A DNA stretch of 64,000 nt. Origin: an uncultured Pelagibacteraceae bacterium (GTDB lineage Bacteria > Pseudomonadota > Alphaproteobacteria > Pelagibacterales > Pelagibacteraceae). Position 1 is the stretch's first letter, and each line of letters opens with the position of its first letter. The stretch covers positions 1-64,000 of the forward strand of contig CACFKZ010000003.1 of assembly GCA_902566945.1 (NCBI GenBank), read 5' to 3'. Made by a program: the position numbers and the translations under genes. The notes below the pieces were generated by a model. The model ran no database searches and had not been told where the DNA came from. It saw nothing but the letters and a program-made list of their open reading frames with translations. Below are positions 2,478 to 61,845 of the stretch, piece after piece.

Positions 2478-4559
<2,082 letters not shown>

Positions 4560-4566
4560 AATTATC

Positions 4567-5856: not shown

Positions 5857-6727
5857 ATTCAAAAGAATATGAAAGGATCTTATAAGCTAATTTAGCTACC
5901 AAAAAGTTATATGAGTCGAATCTTTTTATCGGTGCAAGTTCATTAATATCTGCACCAACTATATTTGATATTTGACAGACCTTCTTTATTATCGGCAAAA
6001 CCTCATCCCAAAATAACCCGCCTGGTTCAGGAGTTCCAGTAGCTGGCATAATACTCGCATCAAAGCCATCTACATCAAAAGTTATATAGACTTGCTTGTT
6101 TTCAAATAAGTTATTTAACTTTTTTAAATCCCAATTTTTTTTATCTTTTGCCCAAAAAATCTTTATTCTATTTTTATTCATATTATAATAATCCATTTCA
6201 GTTTTAGAGAGATTTCTGATTCCGAAAGATACAACTTTTAAATTTTTAAAATCGAGGCACCTCTTAATTGCAGAGGCATGAGAAAATTTTTCTCCTTGAT
6301 AACTTTCTCTTAGATCAGCATGTGCATCAAAATGAAGTAGTATTAACTCTTTATGTCTTTTTACAAATGGTTTTACAGAACCTGGCGTAATAGAGTGTTC
6401 ACCTCCTAAGACTAATGGAAATTTTTTTTCAGATAATATCTTTTCATTAATTTCTGATAATTGATTTAAAGCTTCACTTAATTTACTTTTTATTTTAAAA
6501 GGTTTTAAAGTTTGAATGCTGATCGTTTTGTAAGGTTCTTTATTTAACTCTTCATCAAACAACTCTACTTGATGAGAGGCTTTAATTATTTCTTTCGGTC
6601 CATTCTTAGTTCCACTACCATAGCTTACGGTTTTTTCTAAACCAAATGGTACTACAACTACTTTTGACTTAGATTTAAGATTTGTATCAAATCCCAAAAA
6701 ACCTTTTTTCTGGTCTAAGTAATTCAT
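5846..6727 (-). CDS. speB: Agmatinase/arginase family ureohydrolase
   Basis: GGEHSITPG, HFDAHADLR, FDVDGFDAS motifs. Confidence 0.88.
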   Translation of the reverse strand: MNYLDQKKGFLGFDTNLKSKSKVVVVPFGLEKTVSYGSGTKNGPKEIIKASHQVELFDEELNKEPYKTISIQTLKPFKIKSKLSEALNQLSEINEKILSEKKFPLVLGGEHSITPGSVKPFVKRHKELILLHFDAHADLRESYQGEKFSHASAIKRCLDFKNLKVVSFGIRNLSKTEMDYYNMNKNRIKIFWAKDKKNWDLKKLNNLFENKQVYITFDVDGFDASIMPATGTPEPGGLFWDEVLPIIKKVCQISNIVGADINELAPIKRFDSYNFLVAKLAYKILSYSFEFKR

Positions 6728-46049: not shown

Positions 46050-47141
46050 ATGGAAAAAAAAAATTTTTATGATCTCACGTTTGATCAGTTAAAAGAATTT
46101 TTAATAGAAAAAGTTGGCATTGTCGAAAAACAAGCTAAGATGAGATCTCAGCAAATGTTCAATGCTATTTATAAAAAAAATATCAAAAGTTTCGATGAAT
46201 TAACAACTTTTAGTTTAGATTTAAGAGAAAAAATAAAAGATTTAATTAGCTTAGAAAGATCTGCGAAAATAATTGAAATTCAAAAATCAAAAAATGATGG
46301 AACAATTAAATTTTTATTAGAGTTAAATAAGGATAAACGACAAACAGAAACAGTTTTAATTCCCAACAAAAGTAAATCTAAATATACAATTTGCCTTTCA
46401 GTAAGTGTTGGCTGCTTCCTGAACTGCAAATTCTGTGCTACAGCTCAAATACCTAAAAAACTTGTAAGAAATTTATCTGCTTCAGAGATTATGTCTCAAA
46501 TAATGATTTGCAAAGAATATTTAAATGATTGGAAGACAAGTAATAAATTAGTTAAGACACAAGTTTTGATGGGATCTGGAGATTTTGCCTTAAACGCTGA
46601 AAATGTTCGCACTTATATTCAGAATGCAAAACACAAAGATTCACTAGATTATGGTAGGACTCGAATTACTGTCTCGAGCGTAGGTCTGGGTAATAAGATA
46701 AAAGATTTAAGTGTTATAGAGTGGGCGGCTAGGGAGCTTGATGTTTATTTTGCTTGGAGTTTACATAATCCTATAAACAAACAAAGGTTAGAGATGATGC
46801 CTAACGGTAATTATTCAATAGATGATTTAATTCCTAAATTTAAAAAGTATTATCAAATAACAAAATTACCAATATTTATAGAGTATGTTGCGTTAGAAAA
46901 TAATATTACTAAAGAGCATGCTAACGCGTTGGTTTCATTAATGAAAAAAGTACCAAGCAAATTGAATTTGATTGAGTACAACCCTTTAGACAATCGGGAT
47001 TTCAAACCCGCCACTCAAGAAAATATCGATATTTTTTCTAAAATTATTCAAGATAATGGTTTCTTGGCTTTATTTAGAAAATCAAAAGGTAGAGATATAA
47101 ATGCCTCTTGTGGTAGCCTAGCATTAAAAAGAGTTACTTAA
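46050..47141 (+). CDS. rlmN: RlmN-like radical SAM 23S rRNA/tRNA (adenine-C2) methyltransferase (divergent)
   Basis: CKFCATA radical SAM CxxxCxxC, RITVSSVG, WSLHNPINKQR, RKSKGRDINASCGSL. Confidence 0.88.
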   Translation: MEKKNFYDLTFDQLKEFLIEKVGIVEKQAKMRSQQMFNAIYKKNIKSFDELTTFSLDLREKIKDLISLERSAKIIEIQKSKNDGTIKFLLELNKDKRQTETVLIPNKSKSKYTICLSVSVGCFLNCKFCATAQIPKKLVRNLSASEIMSQIMICKEYLNDWKTSNKLVKTQVLMGSGDFALNAENVRTYIQNAKHKDSLDYGRTRITVSSVGLGNKIKDLSVIEWAARELDVYFAWSLHNPINKQRLEMMPNGNYSIDDLIPKFKKYYQITKLPIFIEYVALENNITKEHANALVSLMKKVPSKLNLIEYNPLDNRDFKPATQENIDIFSKIIQDNGFLALFRKSKGRDINASCGSLALKRVT

Positions 47142-48091
47142 TGTTTCAAGACTTAAATATTTTTTTAGGTGCTGTTGTGGCAGACGCAGCCGCTCGCCCT
47201 CTTCATTGGGTATATGATCCTAAGAAGCTTAAAAGATATATTAAAGGGAAAAAAGAAATTGCTTTTCTAAAAGAAAACAAATCTCCTTTTTATGCTTTAG
47301 AGACGGGTTTAACATCAGGCTACGCAGACATGGGATTAGTTATGTTTCAAACAATAATAACTTCTAAAAAGAAATCAGACATACTTCCGAATTTTAAAAA
47401 AAATATAGTTCAACATTTTGGTCCTGGTTCTAATTACTGGAAAAATTTAAAAGAGAGAAAAAAATATAAAAAGGTTAAATGGAAACGTCCGTTACAGGGC
47501 AACTGGTTGCACCAAAATACGCTTGAGACCATTCAGAATATTAAAGAGAAAAAAAGGATCACAGGAGGTACAAAAGTTTTAGAAACAGACGGATTTAATT
47601 CAGCATTGCCCTATTATTTTCTAGTAAGCAAAGAAGACGAAGAAATTAAAAGAATAATTAGAACTGTGGCTAATTCTCATAAAAATGAATTATATGGATT
47701 AGCTAGATTGAAGATTATAGATTTGGCTAGTGAAGGAGAAAAAAATCCTATTCAAAAATTTATTCAATTAAATAAGAAAAATAAGTATTTTAGAGAAGTA
47801 GTTAAAGATATTAAAAAGGTATTAAAACTTAAAAATCAAAATCATATTTACGTCACAAGAATGCTGGGGAAAGCGTGCTCAGATAACTCGAACTTCAAAA
47901 GTTCAATTCATTGTATAATTACTTCAAGCAATTATGAGTCTGCAATCATTAAGACAATTAAAGCTGGAGGATGTAATTGCAGCAGAGCTATTTTTTGTGG
48001 ATCTTATTTTGCAGCGTTAAAAAAAAGGAATATCCCTTTAGCTTGGATTAAAAAAACCATCGCAGCACAAAAAATTTTAGAGTTTCTTTAA
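47141..48091 (+). CDS. ADP-ribosylglycohydrolase/crystallin-J-like family protein
   Basis: LGAVVADAAARPLHWVYDP; KTIKAGGCNCSRAIFCGSYFAAL...IPLAWIKK. Confidence 0.78.
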   Translation: MFQDLNIFLGAVVADAAARPLHWVYDPKKLKRYIKGKKEIAFLKENKSPFYALETGLTSGYADMGLVMFQTIITSKKKSDILPNFKKNIVQHFGPGSNYWKNLKERKKYKKVKWKRPLQGNWLHQNTLETIQNIKEKKRITGGTKVLETDGFNSALPYYFLVSKEDEEIKRIIRTVANSHKNELYGLARLKIIDLASEGEKNPIQKFIQLNKKNKYFREVVKDIKKVLKLKNQNHIYVTRMLGKACSDNSNFKSSIHCIITSSNYESAIIKTIKAGGCNCSRAIFCGSYFAALKKRNIPLAWIKKTIAAQKILEFL

Positions 48092-48092
48092 T

Positions 48093-48296
48093 TTATTGGT
48101 AACCCTTATTGATCTTTTCTCTTAATTTTTTTTCGTAATACTTCTTAGCTAAATCTTTAGATGAAAAAGATTTGGTTTGTTTAGCAGGGTTTTCAATACC
48201 AATTCTGCCATAGCAAATGTTTATTGATTTACCTTTAAGTTCAATCTCCCAGAATTTATTAGATTTAGCGTCAGTATATTCTAAATGTTTTCTCAT
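48093..48296 (-). CDS. Stand-alone WGR-domain protein
   Basis: 67 aa; KFWEIELKGKSINICYGRIG...KQTKSFSSKDLAKKYYEKKLREKINKGY. Confidence 0.85.
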   Translation of the reverse strand: MRKHLEYTDAKSNKFWEIELKGKSINICYGRIGIENPAKQTKSFSSKDLAKKYYEKKLREKINKGYQ

Positions 48297-48332: not shown

Positions 48333-51300
48333 TTATTTGACTTTATAATCAAGCAATTTATAAAAATTATTCATTAATTTTATCTGATTAATATTTTTAG
48401 GGGAAAATTCTAAAAGTTTTGGATTAAAGAGTATTATTGATGCTACTTGTGCTCTAGATATAGCTACATTCAATCTATTTTTATCAAAGAAAAATTCTTT
48501 ATTTCTTGGTAGTGTTTCGCTATCCGATGAAGTCATTGAAATAATATTTACAGGCGCCTCCTGACCTTGAAATTTGTCTATTGTACCAACTCTGGCATTT
48601 TTAATTTTTTCCTCCTCTAATTTAGCTATCATTAGATTAACTTGTGTATTGTAGGGACTTATTATTAAAAAATCTTTCACATTGAGTTCTCTTTTTTTTC
48701 CATTGTCATTGAATTCACTACCAATCATTTGTTTCATTAAATCAATGACTGTGTCAATTTCCTCTAAACTTGTTTGAACATTGTTTTTATGGTTCATTTC
48801 TATGTAATGAATACCAGGATTTTGAATAATACATTTTTTGTCAAATTTAATAATTCTTTTTTCTGTTCTCTCATCACAATTAAGTCTTCCTTCGTAAAAA
48901 TTAGATGATATAAATTCATTAATTTTTGAGTGCATCCGATAAGTTTTATTCAAGAATATTCCTCTATTTTCAGGGATTGTATCCCGTCTCTCTAAGAGAT
49001 AATCCAAAATTGATTGACCAGATTCGTTTGGGTGAGTTCCTTTTATTGGTTGTCCTAACTGGTTTTGATCTCCAATTAAGACAATATTTTTAGCTATATT
49101 ACCGATACTAATTAAATCCGCTAAACTTACCTGTCCAGCTTCATCAATAAATAAGTAATCGATTTTGCTATCGTAATACGAACTCGCTAAGTGATATTTT
49201 GTGCCAGCAAAAATTTGACCTGCATCTTTTATTTTTAATGCATTCATGAAAACCGGATCTTTTTCATGAGTTTTAATAAAATCTCCATTAAATATTGTAT
49301 CTTCATCCTCAAGGTTTCCCCGTTTATATCCAATGATCTTTAACTGTTTCTCCTTTGCAATACCTTCGACTTTTTGCAATAGATTATGAATTACTTTATG
49401 AGACAAACCTGTAATTGCTATCTTCTTTTTTTGCTTCAATAATTCTATAATTGCGTTTGAAGCTTGAAACGTTTTTCCAGTACCGGGTGGCCCCTGAATA
49501 TAGATATAGCTATTATTTAAGTTTGAAATAATCTTCGGAATTTCTTTAATAAAATCATTTGATTGGATAATTTTTTCTCCAGTTTTTATACCAGTTATAT
49601 TTGGATATTTTTTTTCTAAGAAATCAATTAATGAGCTATATTTTTTTTCTTTATTTATTAGAGAGTCTATAAATTTATATGTATTAGAAACTAACTTTGT
49701 ATTAGGTCTTGGTTTATCCGGACCTATTGATAAAATTTTAGGCAAAATTCCTTGAGAGGTTCCTCTTTTTATTAAAATATCTTTCTTTTTATAATCGATT
49801 TCAATAATTGTCCCTGCATAATCTTTTTGCTCAATATCTTGATTATTTGCAATCACAGTTTTTTTACTTTTTCTAAGCTTAAAATCTTGATCTTCAAATT
49901 TATAAGAATAAAGCAAAGATTTTTTATCTGGTTTAGGCTCACCATCTAACGTCATATTCCCTATACATTCTGGATCTTCAATTAATTCTTCATCAGATTT
50001 TGTTCTTCTTTCAAAGAATTCACGCCATGCAGGCTTATCTTCACGATTATAAAAACCTATTATGTCTGACATTAATTGTTTAATCTTTTTATTTTCAATT
50101 TTAGATTTCTCAACTTTTTCTTGATATGTGATCATATCAATTTCCCAATCTCTTAACTCCATTTCTCCATTTTTCTTCGGAATGAACCAAGAAGTTTCTT
50201 CAGGTTTTTTATCTAATAACCATTTATGTAGTTCATAAGTAGAATGACAGTCTTGTTTGTTGTAACTTTCTATTTCTTCTAAAAATTTTTTATCGTTTGT
50301 TTCTAGCCATTCAATATAATATTCTTGCGAAACATCCCCTCTTTGTACATCGCCCTCTCTTTTAAAATGATAAAATTTTTCCATGTTTTTTAAAGAATTA
50401 CTATTCTCAGAAATAAATAGTCCTTGTCTATTAACTTCTAATAAATTTACAAATTTATCTAAGTTAAGATAATGGTCATATTCAATACCCTTTACTTTAT
50501 GGAAAGAGGATAGTTTTAATAATGCTGTTATTTCATAACTGCCGTAATGATAAATTTTTGAATTTGGGTATTTTTCAAAATGTTGTTTTGTAAAATCAAA
50601 AAACTTAATTAAGTTTTTTTTTTCTTCACTCTTGTTGTGAGACCATAATGCTTTGAAATTTTCTTTTCCATTTTCAATATAAAAAATTCCAAATAGATAT
50701 TCCAAACCTCCGGGATATATATGATCTTCAACACTTTCGATATCAAAGTATAAATCACATTCTGAGGATTTAGGTAACAAGTTAAAACCTTTTGACCCAT
50801 TTAAGTTATAAGGATTTGGTTTATATATTGGAATACCTGTCTTCTCATACTCTTTTTGTAGCTTAGCTTGTGTAACTAATTTGTAAGAAATTTCTTTTCT
50901 AAAACCCTTTATAGGTTTATTTTCATCTTGTTTTGATAATTTAGTCGCTGTATCTATTTTTATATTGAGTAATTTTTTTAAGTGCACTTTTGTCAATCCA
51001 CCAACTTGGTTGAGATTATCTTCTTTTTTCCAAATATTTTCACACCGATCTAGCCATTCACAAGTTTCACAGGCACTACATTTCTCCGGTTTTGTTTTAT
51101 TTACTAAAGTTTCAATAAATTTTTCGTAATTTTCTCTAGTTTTTTTAAAAAATTGATTTACCTGATGTACTTGAACTTCTTCTTGAACCATATTCTTCAA
51201 AACTATGATGAATTTTTTTGGTAAAACCCCTTGGGTTGCCTCTAACATAAATGTGTATGAACCCAATTGTATGATATGATCTGGTTTAGGTTTATTAGAG

Positions 51301-51695
51301 TATTTTGTATCTATTACTTCATAACTATAGTCTCCAAATCTAGATTCTTGATCTTTATTAATAATTAAAAAATCAAATTCACCACTCCATTTATCTCTTT
51401 TTAAACAACCACCAAAAATAATATCAAAACCTTCTTTCATTGCCTGAACGGTTTTTGAGATTTTTTCCTCTTTGGTGAGTTTTTGGTCCTTTAAATTAAG
51501 TGTTTTCTTAAGCTTTTTCTTTAATTCCTTAAAATATTCTTTTTCATGAATATTTCCTCTTTCAATTCTGAGCTTGTCATTTGTTTTTAGCTCAATTCTT
51601 TTGAGTTTGAGCTTTTCTTCGTTTATTTCATTAAATATTTTATACTTACAACTCAAGTACCTCCTAAGCATCGTAGGAGAAAAAAGATTTTTCAT
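48333..51695 (-). CDS. TM0106-like RecB-family nuclease, DEDD exonuclease-like and SF1 helicase fusion
   Basis: N-terminal PD-(D/E)xK (GEFDFL...VIDTKY) with Cys cluster CSACETCEWLDRC; FDIE segment; Walker A IQGPPGTGKTF, DEAGQ, C-terminal LNVAISRAQ. Confidence 0.9.
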   Translation of the reverse strand: MKNLFSPTMLRRYLSCKYKIFNEINEEKLKLKRIELKTNDKLRIERGNIHEKEYFKELKKKLKKTLNLKDQKLTKEEKISKTVQAMKEGFDIIFGGCLKRDKWSGEFDFLIINKDQESRFGDYSYEVIDTKYSNKPKPDHIIQLGSYTFMLEATQGVLPKKFIIVLKNMVQEEVQVHQVNQFFKKTRENYEKFIETLVNKTKPEKCSACETCEWLDRCENIWKKEDNLNQVGGLTKVHLKKLLNIKIDTATKLSKQDENKPIKGFRKEISYKLVTQAKLQKEYEKTGIPIYKPNPYNLNGSKGFNLLPKSSECDLYFDIESVEDHIYPGGLEYLFGIFYIENGKENFKALWSHNKSEEKKNLIKFFDFTKQHFEKYPNSKIYHYGSYEITALLKLSSFHKVKGIEYDHYLNLDKFVNLLEVNRQGLFISENSNSLKNMEKFYHFKREGDVQRGDVSQEYYIEWLETNDKKFLEEIESYNKQDCHSTYELHKWLLDKKPEETSWFIPKKNGEMELRDWEIDMITYQEKVEKSKIENKKIKQLMSDIIGFYNREDKPAWREFFERRTKSDEELIEDPECIGNMTLDGEPKPDKKSLLYSYKFEDQDFKLRKSKKTVIANNQDIEQKDYAGTIIEIDYKKKDILIKRGTSQGILPKILSIGPDKPRPNTKLVSNTYKFIDSLINKEKKYSSLIDFLEKKYPNITGIKTGEKIIQSNDFIKEIPKIISNLNNSYIYIQGPPGTGKTFQASNAIIELLKQKKKIAITGLSHKVIHNLLQKVEGIAKEKQLKIIGYKRGNLEDEDTIFNGDFIKTHEKDPVFMNALKIKDAGQIFAGTKYHLASSYYDSKIDYLFIDEAGQVSLADLISIGNIAKNIVLIGDQNQLGQPIKGTHPNESGQSILDYLLERRDTIPENRGIFLNKTYRMHSKINEFISSNFYEGRLNCDERTEKRIIKFDKKCIIQNPGIHYIEMNHKNNVQTSLEEIDTVIDLMKQMIGSEFNDNGKKRELNVKDFLIISPYNTQVNLMIAKLEEEKIKNARVGTIDKFQGQEAPVNIISMTSSDSETLPRNKEFFFDKNRLNVAISRAQVASIILFNPKLLEFSPKNINQIKLMNNFYKLLDYKVK

Positions 51696-51782
51696 AAAAT
51701 TAATCTAATTAATTGCTCTACCAGTTTCAATTGATTGCTAAAATATCTTTTCTAATATTGTTTTAATTTTTTAAATTTACTA

Positions 51783-51811
51783 TTGACATTAAAATTACTT
51801 TGATTTATAAG
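51783..51811 (+). promoter_or_regulatory. Sigma70-like promoter
   Basis: TTGACA-17 nt-TATAAG. Confidence 0.7.
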
Positions 51812-51836
51812 GGAATTGTTAAGAATTATTAGATAA

Positions 51837-51899
51837 CCTTGTAATGTAGTCGAAGTTGTTCTTAATATCCTTTCGAAGAATATTTCCTATATTACAAGG
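51837..51899 (+). promoter_or_regulatory. Structured 5' UTR (long closing stem)
   Basis: CCTTGTAATGTAG ... CTATATTACAAGG, 13-bp stem with one G-U, enclosing smaller complementary segments. Confidence 0.6.
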
Positions 51900-51931
51900 C
51901 TATAAAACTAAAAAACTAAGGAGTTTTTGTT

Positions 51932-52153
51932 ATGAATTGTAATAAACCTAAGGAATATATTAAATATTTCTCGTGTTACAACTGCAACTGTCTCGGTTTT
52001 TTTCAGGAAACCAGAGGACTTTTAACAGTTTTAGGGTGGAAACTATCGCTTAGCAAAACTCGACCTTGTTATATGTGTTCTGGCAAAGGTTTTGTTGCAT
52101 CTAAAAAAATAATAACAAAAAAAAATAATTACAAATCATTTTTAACTCACTGA
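51932..52153 (+). CDS. Small DnaJ-type zinc-finger protein
   Basis: 73 aa; CYNCNCLGFF and CYMCSGKGFV paired CxxC motifs; strong SD AAGGAG. Confidence 0.75.
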   Translation: MNCNKPKEYIKYFSCYNCNCLGFFQETRGLLTVLGWKLSLSKTRPCYMCSGKGFVASKKIITKKNNYKSFLTH

Positions 52154-52155
52154 TA

Positions 52156-53739
52156 ATGGCACTAGAAGATAAAAAAATAGAGATTTACAAGAATTTGTTA
52201 CTTGGTATTTCAGGAGTTACTGAGGCTAAGTATTCAAAAACAGTGGAATCATCTGTTACAACCAGCTGGGGCGTTAATTGGGATCACGATTTCATCGCTA
52301 GAGACATTTTGCAAAATTTTAGAGACGCCAATCTTAAAGAAATTGATAAAATTGATATAAAAGTTCATGATGATCAAATTCTGGTCTCTGCTAAAAATTC
52401 TTTCGATATACGAAAATTATTTTATATGGGCTCAAATAAATCTGGAGATGATGAAACAATAGGTGAATATGGAGAAGGATTTAAAGCAGCTTGCGTATCC
52501 ATGATTAAATTAGGTATCAACGATCCGATTTCTATAAGTGGTGATAATGCAATAATAATATCAGTAGGCAAAGCGGTGGTAGAAAATATGAGGCCACTTA
52601 TCTACCATTATTTTAAAATTAATAAGCAAAACTCAACAATTTTCAGCGTAAATACCTACGACGAAAAGCTTAAAAAGGCTTTTAAATTTGGGATGAATCA
52701 TTTTTGGTATGAAAAAAATGATCTTGTTGGTCAAAAACTCTACGATTATAACGAAATAGCAGCTTATAGATCTAAGAAATCCAAAGAGGGTTATATTTTT
52801 TATAGAGGTATAATGAGAAATACTATTCCTCATATACCGATAGTAATAAATATTTCAAAAAAGTATGCCGCAATTGAAAATAAAATAAAAGCCGATCGAG
52901 ATAGAAATTCATTTTCTAGTAAACTTACTCAAACTTTTTTTTCAATTTACGCTAGATCCGGTTTTTACTGGGGTGGGATGAAAAACAATCCTGCAATCCA
53001 TTATATCTTAAAAACATCGAAACCGATCTGGCCAAAAGGGCATCAGTTATTGAGTGCTATTGGGACATATTCTAGAAGCTTACATGAAGATCCTGTTATT
53101 AAAAAAATGTTTGCATCAAAAAAATATTATTGTGAGAGTACTTATAATTATACATCTGGAATAACTTGGTCTGATTGGTACGATACTAAGACACAAAGCT
53201 TTGTTTTAAGACGTGATAATAAATTTAAAAAAGATGGTAGAGTAAAACTACCAAGTTATTTTTCTAGCTTCGGCGTTTTGAGCTCTTTAGGACAATTTGT
53301 GAAGAAAAAAAAAGCTGCTGAGGAAAGAGTTAAAAAGACTAAAACAGCATCGCTTACAACAAAGCAAAAGAAAGCTGTAAACCTTGCTTTAGATTGTATT
53401 CGAAAAGTAGCGCCCACTTTTTCAAAATTATATAAAAACCATATTGAAGATGAAGGAATTTATGATTTGAACATTAAAATGTGTGAGTCAAAAGATCTTC
53501 TTGGGCAGTTAAAAGATAATCGGGAATATAATGATAAAACAATTTTTCTTAATAAAGAATTATTTAAAAGTAGTTTTGGAAAATTCTTTAGCACGTTAGC
53601 TCATGAAATGAGCCATGTATTTGGTCAAGACGGACAAAGAGAATTTTCTGATGTGTTAACTCATTTACTAGAGCAAGCCGTGCAAAGAAATAAAATTTTA
53701 AATCAATATGCTAAAAAATGGAAGGAACTAAAATTATGA
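52156..53739 (+). CDS. GHKL-type ATPase-like protein with C-terminal HExxH zincin motif
   Basis: N-box-like ARDILQNFRDAN; G2-like GSNKSGDDETIGEYGEGFKAA; C-terminal STLAHEMSHVFGQDGQREFSDVL. Confidence 0.75.
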   Translation: MALEDKKIEIYKNLLLGISGVTEAKYSKTVESSVTTSWGVNWDHDFIARDILQNFRDANLKEIDKIDIKVHDDQILVSAKNSFDIRKLFYMGSNKSGDDETIGEYGEGFKAACVSMIKLGINDPISISGDNAIIISVGKAVVENMRPLIYHYFKINKQNSTIFSVNTYDEKLKKAFKFGMNHFWYEKNDLVGQKLYDYNEIAAYRSKKSKEGYIFYRGIMRNTIPHIPIVINISKKYAAIENKIKADRDRNSFSSKLTQTFFSIYARSGFYWGGMKNNPAIHYILKTSKPIWPKGHQLLSAIGTYSRSLHEDPVIKKMFASKKYYCESTYNYTSGITWSDWYDTKTQSFVLRRDNKFKKDGRVKLPSYFSSFGVLSSLGQFVKKKKAAEERVKKTKTASLTTKQKKAVNLALDCIRKVAPTFSKLYKNHIEDEGIYDLNIKMCESKDLLGQLKDNREYNDKTIFLNKELFKSSFGKFFSTLAHEMSHVFGQDGQREFSDVLTHLLEQAVQRNKILNQYAKKWKELKL

Positions 53740-54644
53740 TTTATAACCTTAAAATTTCAAAACCTATTCAAAAAAGTAATATAGTTGTGTTTTTTTTAAA
53801 AAACCATGAAATGAGTGAACACACTTATTTAAACTTAAATGAAGCTTTAAGAAAAAATAAAATTGGCATCGAAGAATATGATGATGTGGGTTATAGAGAT
53901 TTGCTAAATATTAAAAATTTGTCGAACGAAAGTTTGTTACTTTTAAACGGAGAGCAAATTATCGGCCATAAGATAAAACAAAATAGAGTAGTAGCAAGCA
54001 CATCGTTAATAGAAAAAAATTCTGAAGGAATAATCAGAGTATCTTGTGGAGAAAAAAATAGATGGTCGGCATTAACAAATGAGGATATCAACACCTCTGA
54101 CTCAATGTTTTTCTCACGGCAAACACTTCATAAACAGAACTTATCGTGGGGACAGATAGATAGCTATCTTTATCAAAATGGTATTAAATCTCTTACTAAA
54201 GACTCATCAATAGTTTACAAGAAGAATAAAATAACTGTAGACAATATTGTTGAGTCGTTTAAGCCAGAGGCTAATGTAATTGGTTTAGCGATAGGAAATC
54301 GTTATGGTATTACAAGCTTAGATGTTTTTTCAAACCCTTTACTATTTCAGCATTACTACAAAAAAATTTTAAGAAGTTACGTACTTGCAAATTTAAGTAA
54401 TAATAAAAAAATGATAAATGTAGATGAACAAGATGTGAATATTTTTCTTCAAAATGTATACGTTGCAAAAAAAAGAAAAATTATGAATTTAAAAGGACAG
54501 CACGGTGAAAAATACTCTCTGCAAAGTAAAAAAATTGTAGGTAATGTTTTGTATGATAAAGCTAAAGTAGTTCATTTTACCGCATTACTTAAAAATGATT
54601 TGAATGAACTTCCAGATAAAAATAAAAAAAGAAAGGCAGCTTAA
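53718..54644 (+). CDS. ARPP-1-like (DUF6569-type) domain protein
   Basis: LNLNEALRKNKIGIEEYDDVGYRDLLNIKNLSNESLLLLNGEQIIGHKIKQNRVV...IRVSCGEKNRWSA; GLAIGNRYGITSLDVFSNPLLFQHYYKKILRSYVL. Confidence 0.68.
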   Translation: MEGTKIMIYNLKISKPIQKSNIVVFFLKNHEMSEHTYLNLNEALRKNKIGIEEYDDVGYRDLLNIKNLSNESLLLLNGEQIIGHKIKQNRVVASTSLIEKNSEGIIRVSCGEKNRWSALTNEDINTSDSMFFSRQTLHKQNLSWGQIDSYLYQNGIKSLTKDSSIVYKKNKITVDNIVESFKPEANVIGLAIGNRYGITSLDVFSNPLLFQHYYKKILRSYVLANLSNNKKMINVDEQDVNIFLQNVYVAKKRKIMNLKGQHGEKYSLQSKKIVGNVLYDKAKVVHFTALLKNDLNELPDKNKKRKAA

Positions 54645-55750
54645 TGACATTTGAAATGAATTATTTGATATTTTCTATAGTTTTTCTAATTATAGGAGTT
54701 TTAGTGGGGTATTTTATTTATTCACGATTAAACAAAGATAAGACTGATCAAAACAAAGATTTAGAAACATTAAAAACAGAAGTTGAAGACACTTTTACAA
54801 GATTACTTAACGATTTAAATGAAAAAGTCGAGTCATACCATACTAAATCTGATCAAGATCGGGGATCTTTAACACAAGTTCTAAAAGATATTCGTTCTAT
54901 TGGTAGTGGTGTTAGTACTGATATTAATACCTTCAAAAATGTCTTAGTTTCTGGTGGTGCTCGTACTCAAGGTCCATGGGGACAAATGGTTCTGGAAAAA
55001 ATTTTGGAAAAGATGGAGTTTACCGAAGGTACTGAATATGAAAAACAAAAATCAATTAAAACAGATGATGGACGTAAAATTCCAGATTGTATCGTTCATC
55101 TCCCAAATGACTCAGGTGATAGAAGAGATATTGTCATTGATGCTAAAGTAAGTTTGCAAGCATGGTCAGAGCACGAGGAAAGTGATGATCCGATTGTAAA
55201 AAAAGAGGCACTCAAAAGACATATTCAATCTGTTAAAAATCATATTAAAGATCTGGCCGGCCAAAATTATCAAAACCTGCCCGGTATAGAGAGCTTAGAC
55301 TCAGTTATAATGTTTTCTCCAAATGAACAGGCGATTTTTGGATTAGGAAAAGATAGCAGAGAAATTTTAGATCTGGCTTTTGATAAAAAAATTGTACCTG
55401 TTGGGCCAACTATGCTTTATTTTGTTTTGAAGTCTGTTGCTGACAATTGGAACAAATCAAAACAATCAAAAAATATGCAAGAGGTAATAAAGATAGCAAA
55501 TTTAGCATGCTCGCAAGCTACTGAAATTTATCATTCAGCGAGAAAATCAAAAGAAAACATTAGTAAAACTCTTGAAAATTTAGATGATGTAATGGATCAA
55601 ATACAAGACGGTAGAGGAAGTTTTTTAGGAAGAATACAAAGAATGACAAAATTGGGCGGGTTAAATCCAAAAAGTATACCCGATGAAGCACTCAAAAATA
55701 TCGAGAACGCTGAAGTAAACACGATTTCAAAAACTAAAATTAAAGACTAA
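54644..55750 (+). CDS. rmuC: DNA recombination protein RmuC
   Basis: N-terminal TM; GARTQGPWGQMVLEKILE; KIPDCIVHLPND...IVIDAKVSLQAW; VPVGPTMLYFVLKSV. Confidence 0.93.
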   Translation: MTFEMNYLIFSIVFLIIGVLVGYFIYSRLNKDKTDQNKDLETLKTEVEDTFTRLLNDLNEKVESYHTKSDQDRGSLTQVLKDIRSIGSGVSTDINTFKNVLVSGGARTQGPWGQMVLEKILEKMEFTEGTEYEKQKSIKTDDGRKIPDCIVHLPNDSGDRRDIVIDAKVSLQAWSEHEESDDPIVKKEALKRHIQSVKNHIKDLAGQNYQNLPGIESLDSVIMFSPNEQAIFGLGKDSREILDLAFDKKIVPVGPTMLYFVLKSVADNWNKSKQSKNMQEVIKIANLACSQATEIYHSARKSKENISKTLENLDDVMDQIQDGRGSFLGRIQRMTKLGGLNPKSIPDEALKNIENAEVNTISKTKIKD

Positions 55751-55755
55751 TTTAA

Positions 55756-57165
55756 ATGAATTATATATTCCTGGATACTGAATCTACGGGCTCTAGCACT
55801 GTTTGGGACCAGGTTTTAGAAATTGGAATGGTGTGGACCGATGAAAATTTAAACATTAAAGAAAAATGGGAAATGCGGAGTAGAATAAAAGATGGGATAG
55901 TTCCAAATTTAGGTGCGTGCGAGGTAACTGGCTTTTCTGTTCAGGACATTACACAATCTAATCATTCACATTTGCAGATGGTGGAAGCTATGGAAAATAC
56001 ATTAAAGCGTTGGGGCAACGCTTATGTATTTGCTTATAACGGGCAAAATTTTGACTACCCTTTGATCCAAAAGACTTTATATAAATCTTTAAAACCAGCT
56101 TATATCACTAATACAAATGGAAAAAAACATGGTGATGTTTTAAATATTATTCGTGCTGCAAAATTAGTTAATCCCGATGTCATTGAAACACCAATGTCAG
56201 ACTCAGGCAATCCAGTATTTAAATTAGATAAATTAATGAAACATGAAGGAGCTCACGGAGCTATGGCGGATACGCTCGCCATGCTTGAAGTAGCTAAAAA
56301 GGCCTTTAATAAAGCAAACTCTGTCTGGAAGTCATCTCTACTTACTATCAGCAAAGCAGATACAGAAGATATTATTACAAAACAAAAATTATTTTGTCAG
56401 CTACAGTGGTTTTATGGCAGAATGAGAAAATATTTAGTCACGCATTTCATATTTCATCCAGTTTATCTTGCATGGGCACAAACATGGGACTTAAGTAATA
56501 ATCCTGAAGACTTTTTTAAATTAGACGATGCTAATTTAAAACAAGCTCTTACAAAGTCTCCAAAAGCACTTAGAACGTTAAAAGCAAACAAAAGTGAAAT
56601 CATCCTAAATCACAAACATGCTTTAACTGAGTCTCCTTATAAAGAAATAGGAGTGGATGAACTTGTCAGAAGAGCCAGTATTTTACAAGATAATTTTGAA
56701 TTTAAAAAAAGAGTTAAAAAAATTTTACAAGATATTCATGATGAGAAAACAGCTAAATCAATAACAGATGATAAAATCTTATATCCAGAGGAAATGCTTT
56801 ATGCAAAAGGCTTTCCTAAGAAAGAAGACCAAACTTTAATGACCTTTTTTCACCAGTTTAAATGGGAAGATAGAGTTGAGCTAATTGATAAATTTAAAGA
56901 GGAAAGGTTTTCAAGATTAGCTGAAAAACTTATTTACGAAGAAAAACCTGAAATTCTTCCAGAAAGCATTAAAAAAAGGGTCAAAAGAGATATAGCAGAA
57001 AGGATTTTTTCGATTGATAAACAAAACTGGACCACGCTTCCAGAGTTTTACAGACAAATTGATGATAAAAGAAATAAGTATGAAAATGATGAAAAAAAAA
57101 TGAAACTATTGAATGAATACGATGAGTTTGCTCAATCTATACAAAGAAAATATGAGACAGCTTAA
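55756..57165 (+). CDS. sbcB: Exodeoxyribonuclease I
   Basis: IFLDTESTGSSTVWDQVLEIG DEDDh exonuclease, FAYNGQNFDYPLIQKTLY, HGAMADTLAMLEVAK; C-terminal domain present. Confidence 0.9.
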   Translation: MNYIFLDTESTGSSTVWDQVLEIGMVWTDENLNIKEKWEMRSRIKDGIVPNLGACEVTGFSVQDITQSNHSHLQMVEAMENTLKRWGNAYVFAYNGQNFDYPLIQKTLYKSLKPAYITNTNGKKHGDVLNIIRAAKLVNPDVIETPMSDSGNPVFKLDKLMKHEGAHGAMADTLAMLEVAKKAFNKANSVWKSSLLTISKADTEDIITKQKLFCQLQWFYGRMRKYLVTHFIFHPVYLAWAQTWDLSNNPEDFFKLDDANLKQALTKSPKALRTLKANKSEIILNHKHALTESPYKEIGVDELVRRASILQDNFEFKKRVKKILQDIHDEKTAKSITDDKILYPEEMLYAKGFPKKEDQTLMTFFHQFKWEDRVELIDKFKEERFSRLAEKLIYEEKPEILPESIKKRVKRDIAERIFSIDKQNWTTLPEFYRQIDDKRNKYENDEKKMKLLNEYDEFAQSIQRKYETA

Positions 57166-57206
57166 GAATAATTATAAACAGGTTTAAATAATAATTATTA
57201 CAAAGG

Positions 57207-57242: not shown

Positions 57243-57611
57243 ATGGCAACTATCAAATCTACTGACGAAAATTTTGAAAAATTAAAAAAAGAACATAAAA
57301 ATCTATTATTAGATTTTTGGGCACCTTGGTGTCGATGAGCCCACTCACATTTTGTGGGTGGGCTCATCGATACAAACCCACGCGGTCCATGCGTTCAAAT
57401 CTCCCCGGTGTTAGAGCAAATTTCTGAAGAGATGAAAGATGTAACTATCGCTAAACATAACATTGAGGAGGAATTAAACCTTCCAGTCCAATATTCTGTG
57501 AGAGGAATTCCTACTATGATTCTTTTTTGTAATGGAGAACAAAAAGCTGTTAAAGTAGGCGCATCTAGCAAAGAAGATCTAGTCGAATTTCTCAAAAAAA
57601 ATAAAATTTAA
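57243..57611 (+). pseudogene. trxA: Thioredoxin trxA interrupted in its active site (pseudogene, or subject to unusual decoding)
   Basis: MATIKSTDENFEKLKKEHKNLLLDFWAPWC - 51 nt insert with TGA - GPCVQISPVLEQISEEMKDVTIAKHNIEEELNLPVQYSVRGIPTMILFCNGEQ, all in one frame. Confidence 0.85.
57332..57370. repeat. Palindromic hairpin inside trxA insert
   Basis: TCGATGAGCCCAC-TCACATTTTGTGG-GTGGGCTCATCGA, perfect 13-bp inverted repeat. Confidence 0.95.
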
Positions 57612-58861
57612 TTCTTATTCAAAATATTTGAAGAAAAATAGAGACTACCAAAACAACAGATAAGTTTTTTTTCATTACTACTGATTTTTTTTAATGCATC
57701 TCTAAAATCTTTTGCTGTTTCAGACTTAATTTTATTATTATTGGCAATTTTGTTGAGTTCTTTAGCAGAAACTGAATCTACGTCTTCTATAGGAATAGCA
57801 ACTATTTTTTTAAATATACCTTTCAAGTTTTTAATGAATTCATCTGGCTCTTTATTTTTAGACATAGCCCAAACACCATATACGGGTAATTTTATTGTTT
57901 TAAGATATTTATACAAATTTAACGCGTCTGCCGGGGCATGAGCACCATCTATCATTATCATTTCATTCTTATGCAACATTTTTTTTATGTTACCTTTTTT
58001 TAAATAATCGTATCTTCCTGGAAAAGCTAGATTGGGAATAGTTTTTTCTATTACTTTTTTGCTGATATTTAAATCTAAAGCTATTTTGATAGCATGAGCA
58101 ATATTGCTAAACATACCTTCGCTATGTACATTTTTAGCATTAAGCTTAATTTTCGCTGACTTATCTTGGTAAAAATAAAGATTATTTTTTTTTATTAATC
58201 TCCAAGAACTTGGATAATGGATTATACTTTTATTTTTTTTCAAATAAAGTTTAGCCTTCTTTAATACATAGGGGGTTTGTTTTGCTATATATATGTTACT
58301 AAAGCTGGATAAATACCCTGTATCTTCTTTGATTATTTCACTAAGAGTTTTTTTTTTAAGAAAGTTTTTATGTTGCAGATTAATATTTGTAACGACTTGA
58401 GCGAGGGGGAAAGAAAAGATATTCGAGCAATCATTTTTCCAAAGAGCTCCAGTCTCTATAATAAAGTAATCTACATTTAGTTTAGACGCATTTATTACAT
58501 AAACCAAAGTAAGAACTTCATACACAGTTAAGGGAATTTTTAATTTTTCAATTTTTTTAATAGTCTCTTTAATTTCTTTATAAGATAAATATCCTTTTCC
58601 CATATAGTATCTATCTCGAATATCAAAAATTGACGGCGAAGTGTAAGTTGATACAGTTTGATTGTTCGCTTCTATGAAATTTTTTAATGACCATAGCGTA
58701 GTAAATTTTCCTGACTCTCCAAGTACACTAATAACTTTATTAAGTTTCCTTTCTGGATTTCCTAATAAATTGAGGGCAAGTTTGATTCTTTTAAGACCAA
58801 ACTTTACAGATTTATTAAATAATTTATGACGCGTTAGATGCTGGTATATCAACTTTGACAT
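57608..58861 (-). CDS. folC: FolC-like folylpolyglutamate/dihydrofolate synthase (divergent)
   Basis: Mur-ligase-like layout, TSPSIFDIRDRYYMG, ETGALWKNDCSN, MIDGAHAPADALNLYKYL; between trxA and accD. Confidence 0.8.
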   Translation of the reverse strand: MSKLIYQHLTRHKLFNKSVKFGLKRIKLALNLLGNPERKLNKVISVLGESGKFTTLWSLKNFIEANNQTVSTYTSPSIFDIRDRYYMGKGYLSYKEIKETIKKIEKLKIPLTVYEVLTLVYVINASKLNVDYFIIETGALWKNDCSNIFSFPLAQVVTNINLQHKNFLKKKTLSEIIKEDTGYLSSFSNIYIAKQTPYVLKKAKLYLKKNKSIIHYPSSWRLIKKNNLYFYQDKSAKIKLNAKNVHSEGMFSNIAHAIKIALDLNISKKVIEKTIPNLAFPGRYDYLKKGNIKKMLHKNEMIMIDGAHAPADALNLYKYLKTIKLPVYGVWAMSKNKEPDEFIKNLKGIFKKIVAIPIEDVDSVSAKELNKIANNNKIKSETAKDFRDALKKISSNEKKLICCFGSLYFSSNILNKN

Positions 58862-59780
58862 TTGATGTTGACTCAGCTTTTACCTCTTTTTCTGATTTTT
58901 TGAGAAGCACTCTTATTAGACTTGTAATTCTCTCTCTAATTTCAATTCTTGATTCAAAAACACCATCAATCATACCTAACTCTTGTAAACTTGATGAAAC
59001 ACCGAAGTTTTCAGGTAGTGCTTGTCCTTTATTAACTGATGCTGAAACTCTTTTTCCAGCAAAAAGCTGCGACTGGTTACCGGGATTGGTAGAAAATAAA
59101 AAATCATTACTGTATGTGTTGCAAAATGTACCGCCAGTAATTTTAGCTTCCAAAATTCCGATTGTGACGATGCCTGCTTTTCTTAATTCTCTCATTGCAA
59201 ACATCTGTTTTGGCATGGAACTGAGCCCGTGTATATTAGTCGCGACGGACATACCGCCGCTTTGATATATTGAGATTACTCCGTCAACTTTTTCTTCTAA
59301 CGCTTTTTGTATACCACTTAAGAGTTGCTCATTTTCTCGGGGCGTCATAGCGGATCCGCCGAAGGCAAAATTGTAACCAAAAGCAACTATATTTAATCCA
59401 TTAACTTTCCCTAACCCTGCTAGGATCGCTGAGTCTTGATTAGTTTTTTTAACATTGGCATTATATTTATCTATATATTTTGTTTCACCAATTTTAAAAT
59501 TTAAAGGGTCTGGGTCAGCAGGAGGGCAAGGTATTCTTTCCCACTCTCCATCATCAAATAAAAGTTCTGTAAATAAAATTTTTGGATCAAGATCAAAGTG
59601 ATGACTGCATTCACAGACATTAAAATTTTTTTTAAGATCATCTCTCAATTTCATTTTATTGCAACCAGGGCAATTAATCCAAGCACTACTCGCTTGATCT
59701 GCCTTTGAAGGTCTGTCTCGTTTAAAGGTTTGTTTTACTTTTTCTACAAATTTAGTTTTAACTTTTAAGATCCAATTCAT
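58824..59780 (-). CDS. accD: Acetyl-CoA carboxylase carboxyltransferase subunit beta (divergent)
   Basis: N-terminal Zn ribbon CPGCNKMKLRDDLKKNFNVCECSHHFDL; FAFGGSAM; ITGGT; gene order. Confidence 0.87.
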   Translation of the reverse strand: MNWILKVKTKFVEKVKQTFKRDRPSKADQASSAWINCPGCNKMKLRDDLKKNFNVCECSHHFDLDPKILFTELLFDDGEWERIPCPPADPDPLNFKIGETKYIDKYNANVKKTNQDSAILAGLGKVNGLNIVAFGYNFAFGGSAMTPRENEQLLSGIQKALEEKVDGVISIYQSGGMSVATNIHGLSSMPKQMFAMRELRKAGIVTIGILEAKITGGTFCNTYSNDFLFSTNPGNQSQLFAGKRVSASVNKGQALPENFGVSSSLQELGMIDGVFESRIEIRERITSLIRVLLKKSEKEVKAESTSNVKVDIPASNAS

Positions 59781-60601
59781 TTCTTGATTCCTCTTGATAG
59801 TTTCTTAACATAAGATGAGACAAATGTGGCTAATTTTTTACCTTTTAACCTTTTTTTATGTCCCTCAGCTACTTTATTTACTATAGATGAGCCACAAATT
59901 ACTCCATCAGCATATTTAGAGACTTGCTTTACTTGAGAAGGTGTCTTTACACCAAAGCCAACTGCTACAGGTATTTCTTTAGAATAATTTCTAACTCTTT
60001 TTACCATTTTTTTAACATTATCTATGTTTACGTTTTTGGAGCCAGTCAATCCAAAATATGATGTAATGTACAACCAAGAATCACGGCAATTTTTTATACT
60101 TAGCTTAATAAATTCATCATCGTTTGTAGGGCTAATAATTTTAATATAACCAATTTTCTTTTTTGAAAGACCGTTTATTAAAATTTTTTCCTCTGGTGAG
60201 TTTAGATTGCTATCTACTATAATGACACCATCAATTCCCACAAAATTGCATTGATTAATAAATTTTTTTAATCCGAATATCTTTACCGGATTTAAATATG
60301 TCATAATCACAAAACAAGTATTTGTCTTAGTTTCTCTTTTAACTTCTCTTATGAGTTTAAAAGTTTTGTTCATATTCATACCAGAATTTATAGCCCGATC
60401 ATTTGCTTCCATAATAATTGGAGAGTCACTTGTGCTAGTGTTAAAACTTATCCCCGCTTCAATTATCTGACAAGATTTTGTCATTTCTTTTATAATTTCT
60501 TTGGATGATTTGTAATTGGGATCACCGCTTGTTACAAATCCTATGAATATTTTTTTTTTATTTTTTTTGGCTTCTTTGAAAAGATTGTTAAGTTTACTCA
60601 T
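59777..60601 (-). CDS. trpA: Tryptophan synthase alpha chain (divergent)
   Basis: FVTSGDP, IEAGISF, NFVGIDGVIIVD, FGLTGSK, VAVGFGVKTPSQV. Confidence 0.88.
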   Translation of the reverse strand: MSKLNNLFKEAKKNKKKIFIGFVTSGDPNYKSSKEIIKEMTKSCQIIEAGISFNTSTSDSPIIMEANDRAINSGMNMNKTFKLIREVKRETKTNTCFVIMTYLNPVKIFGLKKFINQCNFVGIDGVIIVDSNLNSPEEKILINGLSKKKIGYIKIISPTNDDEFIKLSIKNCRDSWLYITSYFGLTGSKNVNIDNVKKMVKRVRNYSKEIPVAVGFGVKTPSQVKQVSKYADGVICGSSIVNKVAEGHKKRLKGKKLATFVSSYVKKLSRGIKK

Positions 60602-61845
60602 TTATTTTTTTTCATATGTTCCATCATTTGTGCAACATTTGGTTCTCCAGCGCCACATAAGTGAATTAAATGATTTTGTTTAGGCTTTCCTATTTTTCTA
60701 ATTTCTTTGATTGCAGCATGAATCACATAACAAGCCTCGATTGCACAAATTAAACCAACTTTACGAGCCATCATCATAAAGGTTTTTTTTGCTTCTAAAT
60801 CTGTAGCAGTCAAAAATTTTATCCTTCCAACCGATTGAAGAAAAGCTACTTCAGTTCCTATAGAGCTGAAATCGAGCCCCGATGCTTCTGTAAAACTTTC
60901 TGCGATATTTTCTCCATCTAACAAAACTTTTGATTGCATACCAAGTAAAATTCCAATTTTTCCACCACCACCAATAGTTGCTCCATGTTTTCCAGTTTTC
61001 AAACCTTTGCCTGCAGATTCTACTGCATATATTTTAGTATTTTTCGTTTTAAGGTATGGATATGAGATACAAAGCATATTGGATCCACCTCCACATACAG
61101 AAAATATTGTTGAAGGATCTTTACCCACTAAATTTTTAAATTGTTTTTTTGTAATTCGACCAATGACACTGCCGAATGTTCTTACCATAAGAGGATATGG
61201 ATGCGGTCCTGCTACGCTTCCAACTACATACATTGAGTCTGGCTCGCTTTGAAATGCTCGAAGGGCAGCAGCCATAGCTGGCAACAAAGATTTTGTTGAG
61301 TCATGTACCTCAATTATATTAGCGCCATGAAGGGCAGATATATCTTTATTAATTGCTAATTTTTTAGCATCATTTGCACCAACATAAATATCTAAATCCA
61401 ATCCTAATGCAGCACAGGCAGAAGCAACGGCACGACCATTTTGGAATGCTCCAGTTTCAGTTAGAATCTTTTTAAACCCTAAATACTTTGCAAGTTTGCA
61501 ACAAGAATAAGCTGATACAGGTTTGTGACTGTGGTTTGTGTGCAAATCCGTTCTTTTAAGATAAATTTTACCAATTTTCTTTTCTCCCCCAGCTAATTTA
61601 GTCAGTTCAGGGCTAAAATGTACAGGTGTATTAACACCAATAAAAGAAAGCAGTTCTTCATTGAGCTCTCTCATAAATTTTTTATCTTTTATGGCTTTAA
61701 AAAAACCTTTCTCCACTCTTTTAAGATTTGGAACAAGCAGAGGAGAAATATATTGACCACCAAATCGCTCTTTAGTTTTTTTATTGATCCAAAAACCATC
61801 TTTTGTTGGTGGATTTATTTCTTTAAAAGGGGGAATTTTCATCAA
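60598..61845 (-). CDS. trpB: Tryptophan synthase beta chain (divergent)
   Basis: RFGGQYISPLL, KRTDLHTNHSHKPVSAY (PLP Lys), ETGAFQNG, CGGGSNML. Confidence 0.88.
   Translation of the reverse strand: MMKIPPFKEINPPTKDGFWINKKTKERFGGQYISPLLVPNLKRVEKGFFKAIKDKKFMRELNEELLSFIGVNTPVHFSPELTKLAGGEKKIGKIYLKRTDLHTNHSHKPVSAYSCCKLAKYLGFKKILTETGAFQNGRAVASACAALGLDLDIYVGANDAKKLAINKDISALHGANIIEVHDSTKSLLPAMAAALRAFQSEPDSMYVVGSVAGPHPYPLMVRTFGSVIGRITKKQFKNLVGKDPSTIFSVCGGGSNMLCISYPYLKTKNTKIYAVESAGKGLKTGKHGATIGGGGKIGILLGMQSKVLLDGENIAESFTEASGLDFSSIGTEVAFLQSVGRIKFLTATDLEAKKTFMMMARKVGLICAIEACYVIHAAIKEIRKIGKPKQNHLIHLCGAGEPNVAQMMEHMKKNK

What the first reader, a model, noticed from the sequence alone, without database searches (positions are those of the whole stretch)
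51783..57165. Candidate undescribed system: Zn-finger / GHKL-zincin / ARPP-1 / RmuC / exonuclease I operon
Five same-strand genes are packed with almost no spacing (51932-52153, 52156-53739, 53718-54644, 54644-55750, 55756-57165) behind one consensus promoter and a structured leader. Two members are recognised DNA-end processing proteins (RmuC, SbcB-type exonuclease I). The others are a small DnaJ-type Zn finger, a GHKL-ATPase-like/HExxH fusion and an ARPP-1-like protein. I know of no described system with this gene set. A DNA repair, phage-defence or stress-response system in which an ATP-gated protease regulates DNA-end degradation is an inference.
Basis: partly seen in the sequence, partly recalled or inferred. 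Interest (0 to 1): 0.87.

Follow-up and report, generated by a model that had tools for sequence, protein, structure and literature searches.

The report
SAR11 swappable DNA-end-processing operon
In SAR11, very abundant ocean bacteria, the chromosomal spot that in related bacteria holds the AddAB DNA-repair enzyme carries instead two DNA-trimming genes, and a minority of strains have a five-gene version with a new chaperone-like/protease fusion protein that is exchanged between strains as one block; it is probably a DNA-repair or anti-virus module, but its function is untested.

Summary
In detail: five tightly packed genes with a conserved promoter and a hairpin leader, in a Pelagibacteraceae (SAR11) genome. 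The interpretation needs splitting. rmuC and the ExoI-type exonuclease are not special to this system. They form the normal SAR11 locus beside trxA-folC-accD, the place where other Alphaproteobacteria keep addA. AddA was not found above cut-off in any of 61 Pelagibacterales genomes. What is special is a rare version (10 of 397 genomes of the order) carrying a GHKL-like/zincin fusion, here with an ARPP-1 protein and a small Zn-finger protein. The fusion occurs beside rmuC and exoI in all 15 genomes found. The window's five genes behave as one exchange unit: a 5.5-kb block is shared with another strain whose flanks are unrelated. Fusion-protein distances track those of ExoI, RmuC and ARPP-1 (r 0.87-0.98) but not neighbouring Trx (0.06). 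All five genes are under purifying selection. Best reading: a modular DNA-end-processing operon, repair or anti-phage. An "ATP-gated protease" is unproven: the GHKL G1-box Asp is missing, while HExxH is invariant. It is not a DRT system: no reverse transcriptase in 397 genomes. Side find: trxA next door carries a T4-gene-60-like hairpin insert at the active-site codons.

The parts
51783..51811 (+). promoter TTGACA-17-TATAAG
   Evidence: read directly; same -35 and spacing in L003, L004 (TATAAT) and L005; the consensus scan missed it because it requires T at the last position
51835..51902 (+). structured 5' leader hairpin
   Evidence: z = -3.5; the stem is kept in diverged L005
51932..52153 (+). 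small protein with two CxxC pairs (Zn-finger-like), 73 aa
   Evidence: ORF; homologues in L003, L004, L005, L042; pN/pS 0.07
52156..53739 (+). GHKL-like / HExxH zincin fusion protein, 527 aa (new family, A4)
   Evidence: 12-member alignment with invariant N-box N/D, GxxGEG and HExxHxxG; pN/pS 0.05
53736..54644 (+). ARPP-1 protein (PF20208)
   Evidence: E = 1.6e-44; co-diverges with the GHKL-zincin, r = 0.98
54644..55750 (+). RmuC, membrane-anchored predicted PD-(D/E)XK nuclease; the only copy in the genome
   Evidence: PF02646 1.3e-64; one match in G000; IVIDAK motif present in the translation
55756..57165 (+). exodeoxyribonuclease I (SbcB)-type DEDDh exonuclease
   Evidence: PF00929 and PF08411; D/E/D/H/D kept against E. 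coli ExoI 1fxx
48333..51695 (-). associated, not a strict member: TM0106-type RecB-like nuclease + RNase H fold + SF1 helicase (Dna2-like layout), divergent to the operon
   Evidence: TIGR03491 1.4e-70 and AAA_12; in 8 of 16 fusion-carrying loci and 3 of 49 others
48093..48296 (-). associated: WGR-domain small protein
   Evidence: PF05406 1e-15; family in 11 of 16 fusion-carrying loci and 2 of 49 others
47141..48091 (+). core-locus neighbour: ADP-ribosylglycohydrolase
   Evidence: PF03747 4e-16; next to rmuC in many ordinary loci
57243..57611 (+). trxA (thioredoxin) interrupted by a 51-nt hairpin insert at 57333-57383; flanking core gene

Best explanation
SHOWN: this is one allelic version of the SAR11 rmuC-exoI locus, which sits at the ancestral addAB position (trxA-folC-accD side). 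In this version a Zn-finger protein, a GHKL-like/zincin fusion and ARPP-1 are co-transcribed in arrangement and co-inherited with rmuC and exoI, and the five genes move between strains as one block of about 5.5 kb. INFERRED: the operon is a DNA-end-processing module in genomes without AddAB. RmuC (duplex or structured ends, at the membrane) and ExoI (3' to 5' on single strands), in half of the cases with the Dna2-like TM0106 helicase-nuclease and a WGR end-binding protein, degrade or trim linear DNA such as broken chromosomes or incoming phage DNA. INFERRED, weaker: the GHKL-like domain senses a partner or nucleotide and the zincin domain cuts a regulator, so that the nucleases are released only when needed. 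Strain-to-strain swapping suggests pressure from phages or their nuclease inhibitors.
For: rmuC is single copy in 54 of 61 genomes and lies within 12 kb of accD in 49 of 49 same-contig cases. trxA lies directly downstream of addA in 17 of 20 other alphaproteobacteria, while AddA is absent above cut-off in 61 of 61 Pelagibacterales. The fusion protein lies with rmuC and exoI in all 16 loci. Window and L004 share 51682-57167 at 85% nt with unrelated flanks. Distance correlations: ExoI 0.92, RmuC 0.87, ARPP-1 0.98, Trx 0.06, TM0106 0.24. pN/pS 0.05-0.19. Catalytic residues kept in ExoI, and HExxH in the zincin. Alternative cassettes at the same spot include a NurA/HerA/AAA_15 set with defence-profile hits.
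Against: No functional data. The ordinary rmuC-exoI version exists without any of the three extra genes, so these are not needed for the basic function. The G1-box Asp is missing and the structure prediction failed (pLDDT 36), so ATP binding is unproven. RmuC of L005 is only 26% identical to the window's although its fusion protein is 71% identical, so RmuC can be swapped alone. Correlated distances partly reflect a few near-identical loci and genus structure (Fol and Acc also correlate, r 0.64 and 0.54).
Confidence: 0.45

Rival explanations
1. Dedicated anti-phage system: the operon degrades invading phage DNA or aborts infection, and rmuC/exoI were recruited as effectors.
For: Patchy (10 of 397 genomes), swapped as a block, at a spot that in another strain holds AAA_15/NurA/HerA genes with PADLOC hits; RmuC is co-opted in the Shield anti-phage system (title and abstract of PMC10270631).
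Against: rmuC and exoI are core single-copy genes in strains without the cassette. No PADLOC model matches the fusion protein or ARPP-1. The RTasSbcB defence profile scores the ordinary core ExoI even higher (303 against 217 bits), so that hit is not evidence for defence.
Confidence: 0.3
2. Pure DNA-repair variant: the operon replaces AddAB in double-strand break repair, the extra genes tune it, and phages play no part.
For: Position at the ancestral addAB locus; Dna2-like TM0106 and WGR associations.
Against: Rapid allelic exchange and 15-40% identity between RmuC/ExoI versions within one family are unusual for pure housekeeping repair genes.
Confidence: 0.25
3. Insertion hotspot without functional link: unrelated genes accumulate beside rmuC-exoI and hitchhike with recombination across divergent trp-acc-fol alleles.
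For: Flanking trpB/trpA/accD/folC are themselves extremely mosaic; many different cargoes occur.
Against: The fusion protein keeps rmuC within 1.5 kb in all 16 loci, ATGA/TAATG overlaps link the genes, and distances to immediate neighbours Trx and TM0106 do not correlate.
Confidence: 0.15
4. Member of the defence-associated reverse transcriptase (DRT) class, whose accessory profiles RTasRmuC and RTasSbcB it matches.
For: PADLOC hits 1e-51 and 1e-64.
Against: No RVT_1 match in its own genome or in any of 397 Pelagibacterales genomes.
Confidence: 0.02

Closest known systems
AddAB / RecBCD DNA-end-processing enzymes
   Same: Same chromosomal neighbourhood (trxA-folC-accD side) and a toolkit with nuclease and, nearby in half of the cases, helicase activities
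   Different: No AddA or AddB homologue; separate RmuC and ExoI nucleases, a zincin fusion and ARPP-1
DRT-associated RmuC/SbcB accessory genes (PADLOC RTasRmuC, RTasSbcB)
   Same: The RmuC and ExoI proteins match these profiles
   Different: No reverse transcriptase anywhere in the order sampled; ordinary SAR11 ExoI matches better
Shield (RmuC-domain anti-phage system of Pseudomonas, PMC10270631)
   Same: Uses an RmuC domain
   Different: I read only its title and abstract start; no Shield model matched in PADLOC, and its other genes were not compared
GHKL/sacsin-type ATPases and zincin peptidases (YgjP/SprT/DUF4344-like)
   Same: N-box and G2-box motifs, HExxH
   Different: Canonical G1-box Asp missing; no Pfam family reached; the fusion of the two is not in the libraries searched

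Membership tests
RmuC (PF02646) | match above the Pfam gathering score | tested here: met
   218.6 bits against 26
Exonuclease I (SbcB) | DEDDh catalytic residues and ExoI C-terminal domain | tested here: met
   PF00929 and PF08411 above cut-off; alignment to 1fxx keeps D/E/D/H/D
Exonuclease I (SbcB) | NCBIfam equivalog cut-off NF008746 | tested here: not met
   122 bits against 260: a divergent member, not an assured equivalog
ARPP-1 (PF20208) | match above the Pfam gathering score | tested here: met
   152.9 bits against 27
GHKL ATPase | N-box Asn/Asp and G2 box | tested here: met
   N54, D57, G103xxG106-E107-G108 invariant in 12 homologues
GHKL ATPase | G1-box DxGxG Asp contacting adenine | tested here: not met
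   position is A/S/G in the alignment
GHKL ATPase | three-dimensional fold | tested here: inconclusive
   AlphaFold2 with 4 sequences gave pLDDT 36
zincin metallopeptidase | HExxH motif | tested here: met
   invariant H483, E484, H487, with G490 and D492/D499
zincin metallopeptidase | membership of a named Pfam peptidase family | tested here: not met
   YgjP-like 0.0036, DUF4344 0.013 at best, below cut-offs
DRT (defence-associated reverse transcriptase) | reverse transcriptase gene | tested here: not met
   0 of 397 genomes
AddAB | AddA homologue | tested here: not met
   0 of 61 genomes over cut-off; only UvrD-type matches
AddAB functional replacement | processes double-strand ends in vivo | not testable with these tools
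   needs experiment
Shield | Shield gene set | not tested
   no PADLOC Shield model matched, but the genes were not compared directly

The most novel reading that the evidence does not exclude
SAR11 replaced AddAB by a modular, strain-swappable DNA-end-processing and anti-phage locus in which a GHKL-like/zincin protein is the sensor-protease that controls RmuC and ExoI.
Probability: 0.25. Interest if true: 0.85.

Novelty: new variant of a known kind. Interest (0 to 1): 0.62.

Why it matters
SAR11 is among the most abundant bacterial groups on Earth (general knowledge), has small genomes and, in the genomes sampled, lacks AddAB. How it handles broken DNA and phages is a basic open question. A single chromosomal locus with a fixed nuclease pair and exchangeable partner genes gives a concrete place to test this, and the GHKL-like/zincin fusion is a protein family without a name in the libraries searched.

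Tried and rejected
PDB profile search: no meaningful match for the fusion protein, ARPP-1 or RmuC. No homologue of the fusion protein in IMG/VR or plasmids; one weak partial phage hit at 4e-3. DRT membership considered because of PADLOC hits and rejected. Rfam: only a sub-threshold microRNA match. Literature: no paper with ARPP-1 and RmuC, Pelagibacter and RmuC; the two papers with SAR11 and AddAB mention them apart. The main UG/Abi reverse-transcriptase paper is not in the library. The consensus promoter scan did not list the promoter, which was read by eye and from the alignment. My regular expressions for ExoI and RmuC motifs across all loci missed many sequences and are not used as evidence.

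Full report
WHAT IS THERE. The five genes exist as described, with one start corrected: ARPP-1 most likely starts at 53736, giving an ATGA overlap. RmuC overlaps the ARPP-1 stop by one base. The promoter TTGACA-17-TATAAG (51783-51811) and the leader hairpin are kept in relatives. Only two proteins had strong textbook assignments at the outset, RmuC and ExoI; ARPP-1 is also a clear Pfam member. The 527-aa protein has GHKL-like N-box and G2-box motifs and an HExxH motif, all invariant in 12 homologues, but not the G1-box Asp.

WHERE IT IS. Near-identical operons lie in single-cell genomes labelled Pelagibacteraceae, so the window is SAR11. One homologue is in a MAG labelled Bdellovibrionales (L005); its cassette and trxA look like the SAR11 ones, so mis-binning is possible but was not tested.

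THE LOCUS. Fetching the accD side of related genomes shows that rmuC-exoI-trxA, convergent to folC-accD-trpA-trpB, is the usual arrangement in the order. In most Pelagibacter-type loci rlmN and an ADP-ribosylglycohydrolase gene precede rmuC. RmuC is single copy in 54 of 61 genomes and lies within 12 kb of accD in all 49 genomes where both are on one contig. In other Alphaproteobacteria the gene beside trxA is addA: 17 of 20 addA loci have trxA immediately downstream, four with folC visible within the fetched flank. In 61 Pelagibacterales genomes no AddA passes the cut-off; the weak matches are UvrD-sized ORFs.

THE SPECIAL VERSION. The GHKL-like/zincin protein is in 4 of 169 genomes of the genus and 10 of 397 of the order, and in none of the other genomes of an even class sample of 289. 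In all 16 loci (15 genomes) it lies within 1.5 kb of rmuC and 3.6 kb of exoI. Three layouts exist: fusion-ARPP-1-RmuC-ExoI (window, L003, L004, L005, L006, L041, and L042 with extra genes in between), ExoI and an unnamed partner gene divergent from fusion-RmuC (L007, L043-L048), and ExoI-fusion-RmuC (L023). ARPP-1 occurs in 7 of 16 such loci and in 0 of 49 other rmuC-exoI loci; the WGR protein in 11 of 16 and 2 of 49; the TM0106 helicase-nuclease in 8 of 16 and 3 of 49. Over 397 genomes TM0106 and the fusion co-occur in 6 where 0.4 would be expected. These counts ignore shared ancestry.

ONE UNIT. Window and L004 align without a break from 51682 to 57167 at 85% nucleotide identity, while the genes on both sides are of unrelated versions (TM0106 39%, Trx 29%, FolC 30% amino-acid identity). 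L006 likewise shares the operon at 96% but not trxA. Among 13 loci the distances of the fusion protein correlate with ExoI (0.92), RmuC (0.87) and ARPP-1 (0.98) but not with Trx (0.06) or TM0106 (0.24). pN/pS between window and L004 is 0.05-0.19 for all five genes.

HOW IT MAY WORK. From established knowledge: ExoI digests 3'-ended single strands; RmuC is a predicted PD-(D/E)XK nuclease; WGR domains bind DNA breaks in PARPs; a RecB-like nuclease fused to an SF1 helicase has the layout of Dna2. A DNA-end-processing module is therefore the most economical reading. Whether its targets are broken chromosomes, phage DNA or both is open. A regulatory protease is an inference from HExxH only.

KNOWN SYSTEMS. 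PADLOC calls RmuC and ExoI accessory genes of reverse-transcriptase systems, but there is no reverse transcriptase in 397 genomes, and ordinary SAR11 ExoI scores higher on that model. I found no description of this gene set in the papers searched, a limited library.

SIDE FINDING. trxA next to the operon is interrupted in the window, L003, L006, L008 and L047 by 41-51 nt at the codons of the WCGPC active site. A stop codon follows at once or within two codons, then a strong hairpin; the downstream part stays intact (pN/pS 0.05 over 75 codons, window against L003). There are four unrelated insert sequences, and in L008 and L047 the gap of 41 nt cannot be read through in frame; there GGT before and GGC after the gap would fit one glycine tRNA. 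Such hairpins are rare in these loci (20 in 1.1 Mb). Presence in independent genomes argues against a single assembly error. This resembles the translational bypass of T4 gene 60, but excision of an element or a decaying gene is not excluded.

LIMITS. Genomes are incomplete single-cell or metagenome assemblies; no experiment was done; no structure is available.

Noticed in passing
window 57333-57383; L003 15192-15242; L006 about 4417-4782; L008 about 5602-5961 (reverse); L047 12663-13033: trxA carries a 41-51 nt hairpin insert with an immediate or near-immediate stop codon at the WCGPC codons in five genomes (four unrelated inserts), with the downstream part under purifying selection: candidate T4-gene-60-like translational bypass or excised element. 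Not seen in about 60 other trxA genes at this locus.
   Followed up: partly
window 57608-61845 and L003, L004, L008, L009: folC, accD, trpA and trpB beside the operon exist as extremely divergent, mosaic alleles: window TrpB is 93% identical to G005 but 23-34% to all others, including L003, whose fusion protein is 99% identical; window AccD and FolC score low on their Pfam models.
   Followed up: partly
L056 24-9978: The trxA-side spot in one genome holds DUF2130, GrpE-like, Hsp70, PDZ-TerB, M48 peptidase and a 1078-aa protein before TM0106, an unfamiliar gene set.
   Followed up: no
L016 8311-15453: AAA_15/NurA/HerA gene set with defence-profile hits inserted beside rmuC.
   Followed up: partly
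L007 7516-8952 and L009, L043-L048, L053, L058, L061: Unnamed protein family of 380-494 aa, always next to exoI in the divergent layout; no Pfam or PADLOC match. By eye it resembles a LexA/S24-type domain without the catalytic Ser.
   Followed up: no
L005: Contig labelled Bdellovibrionales carries a SAR11-like cassette and trxA; possible mis-binning or transfer.
   Followed up: no
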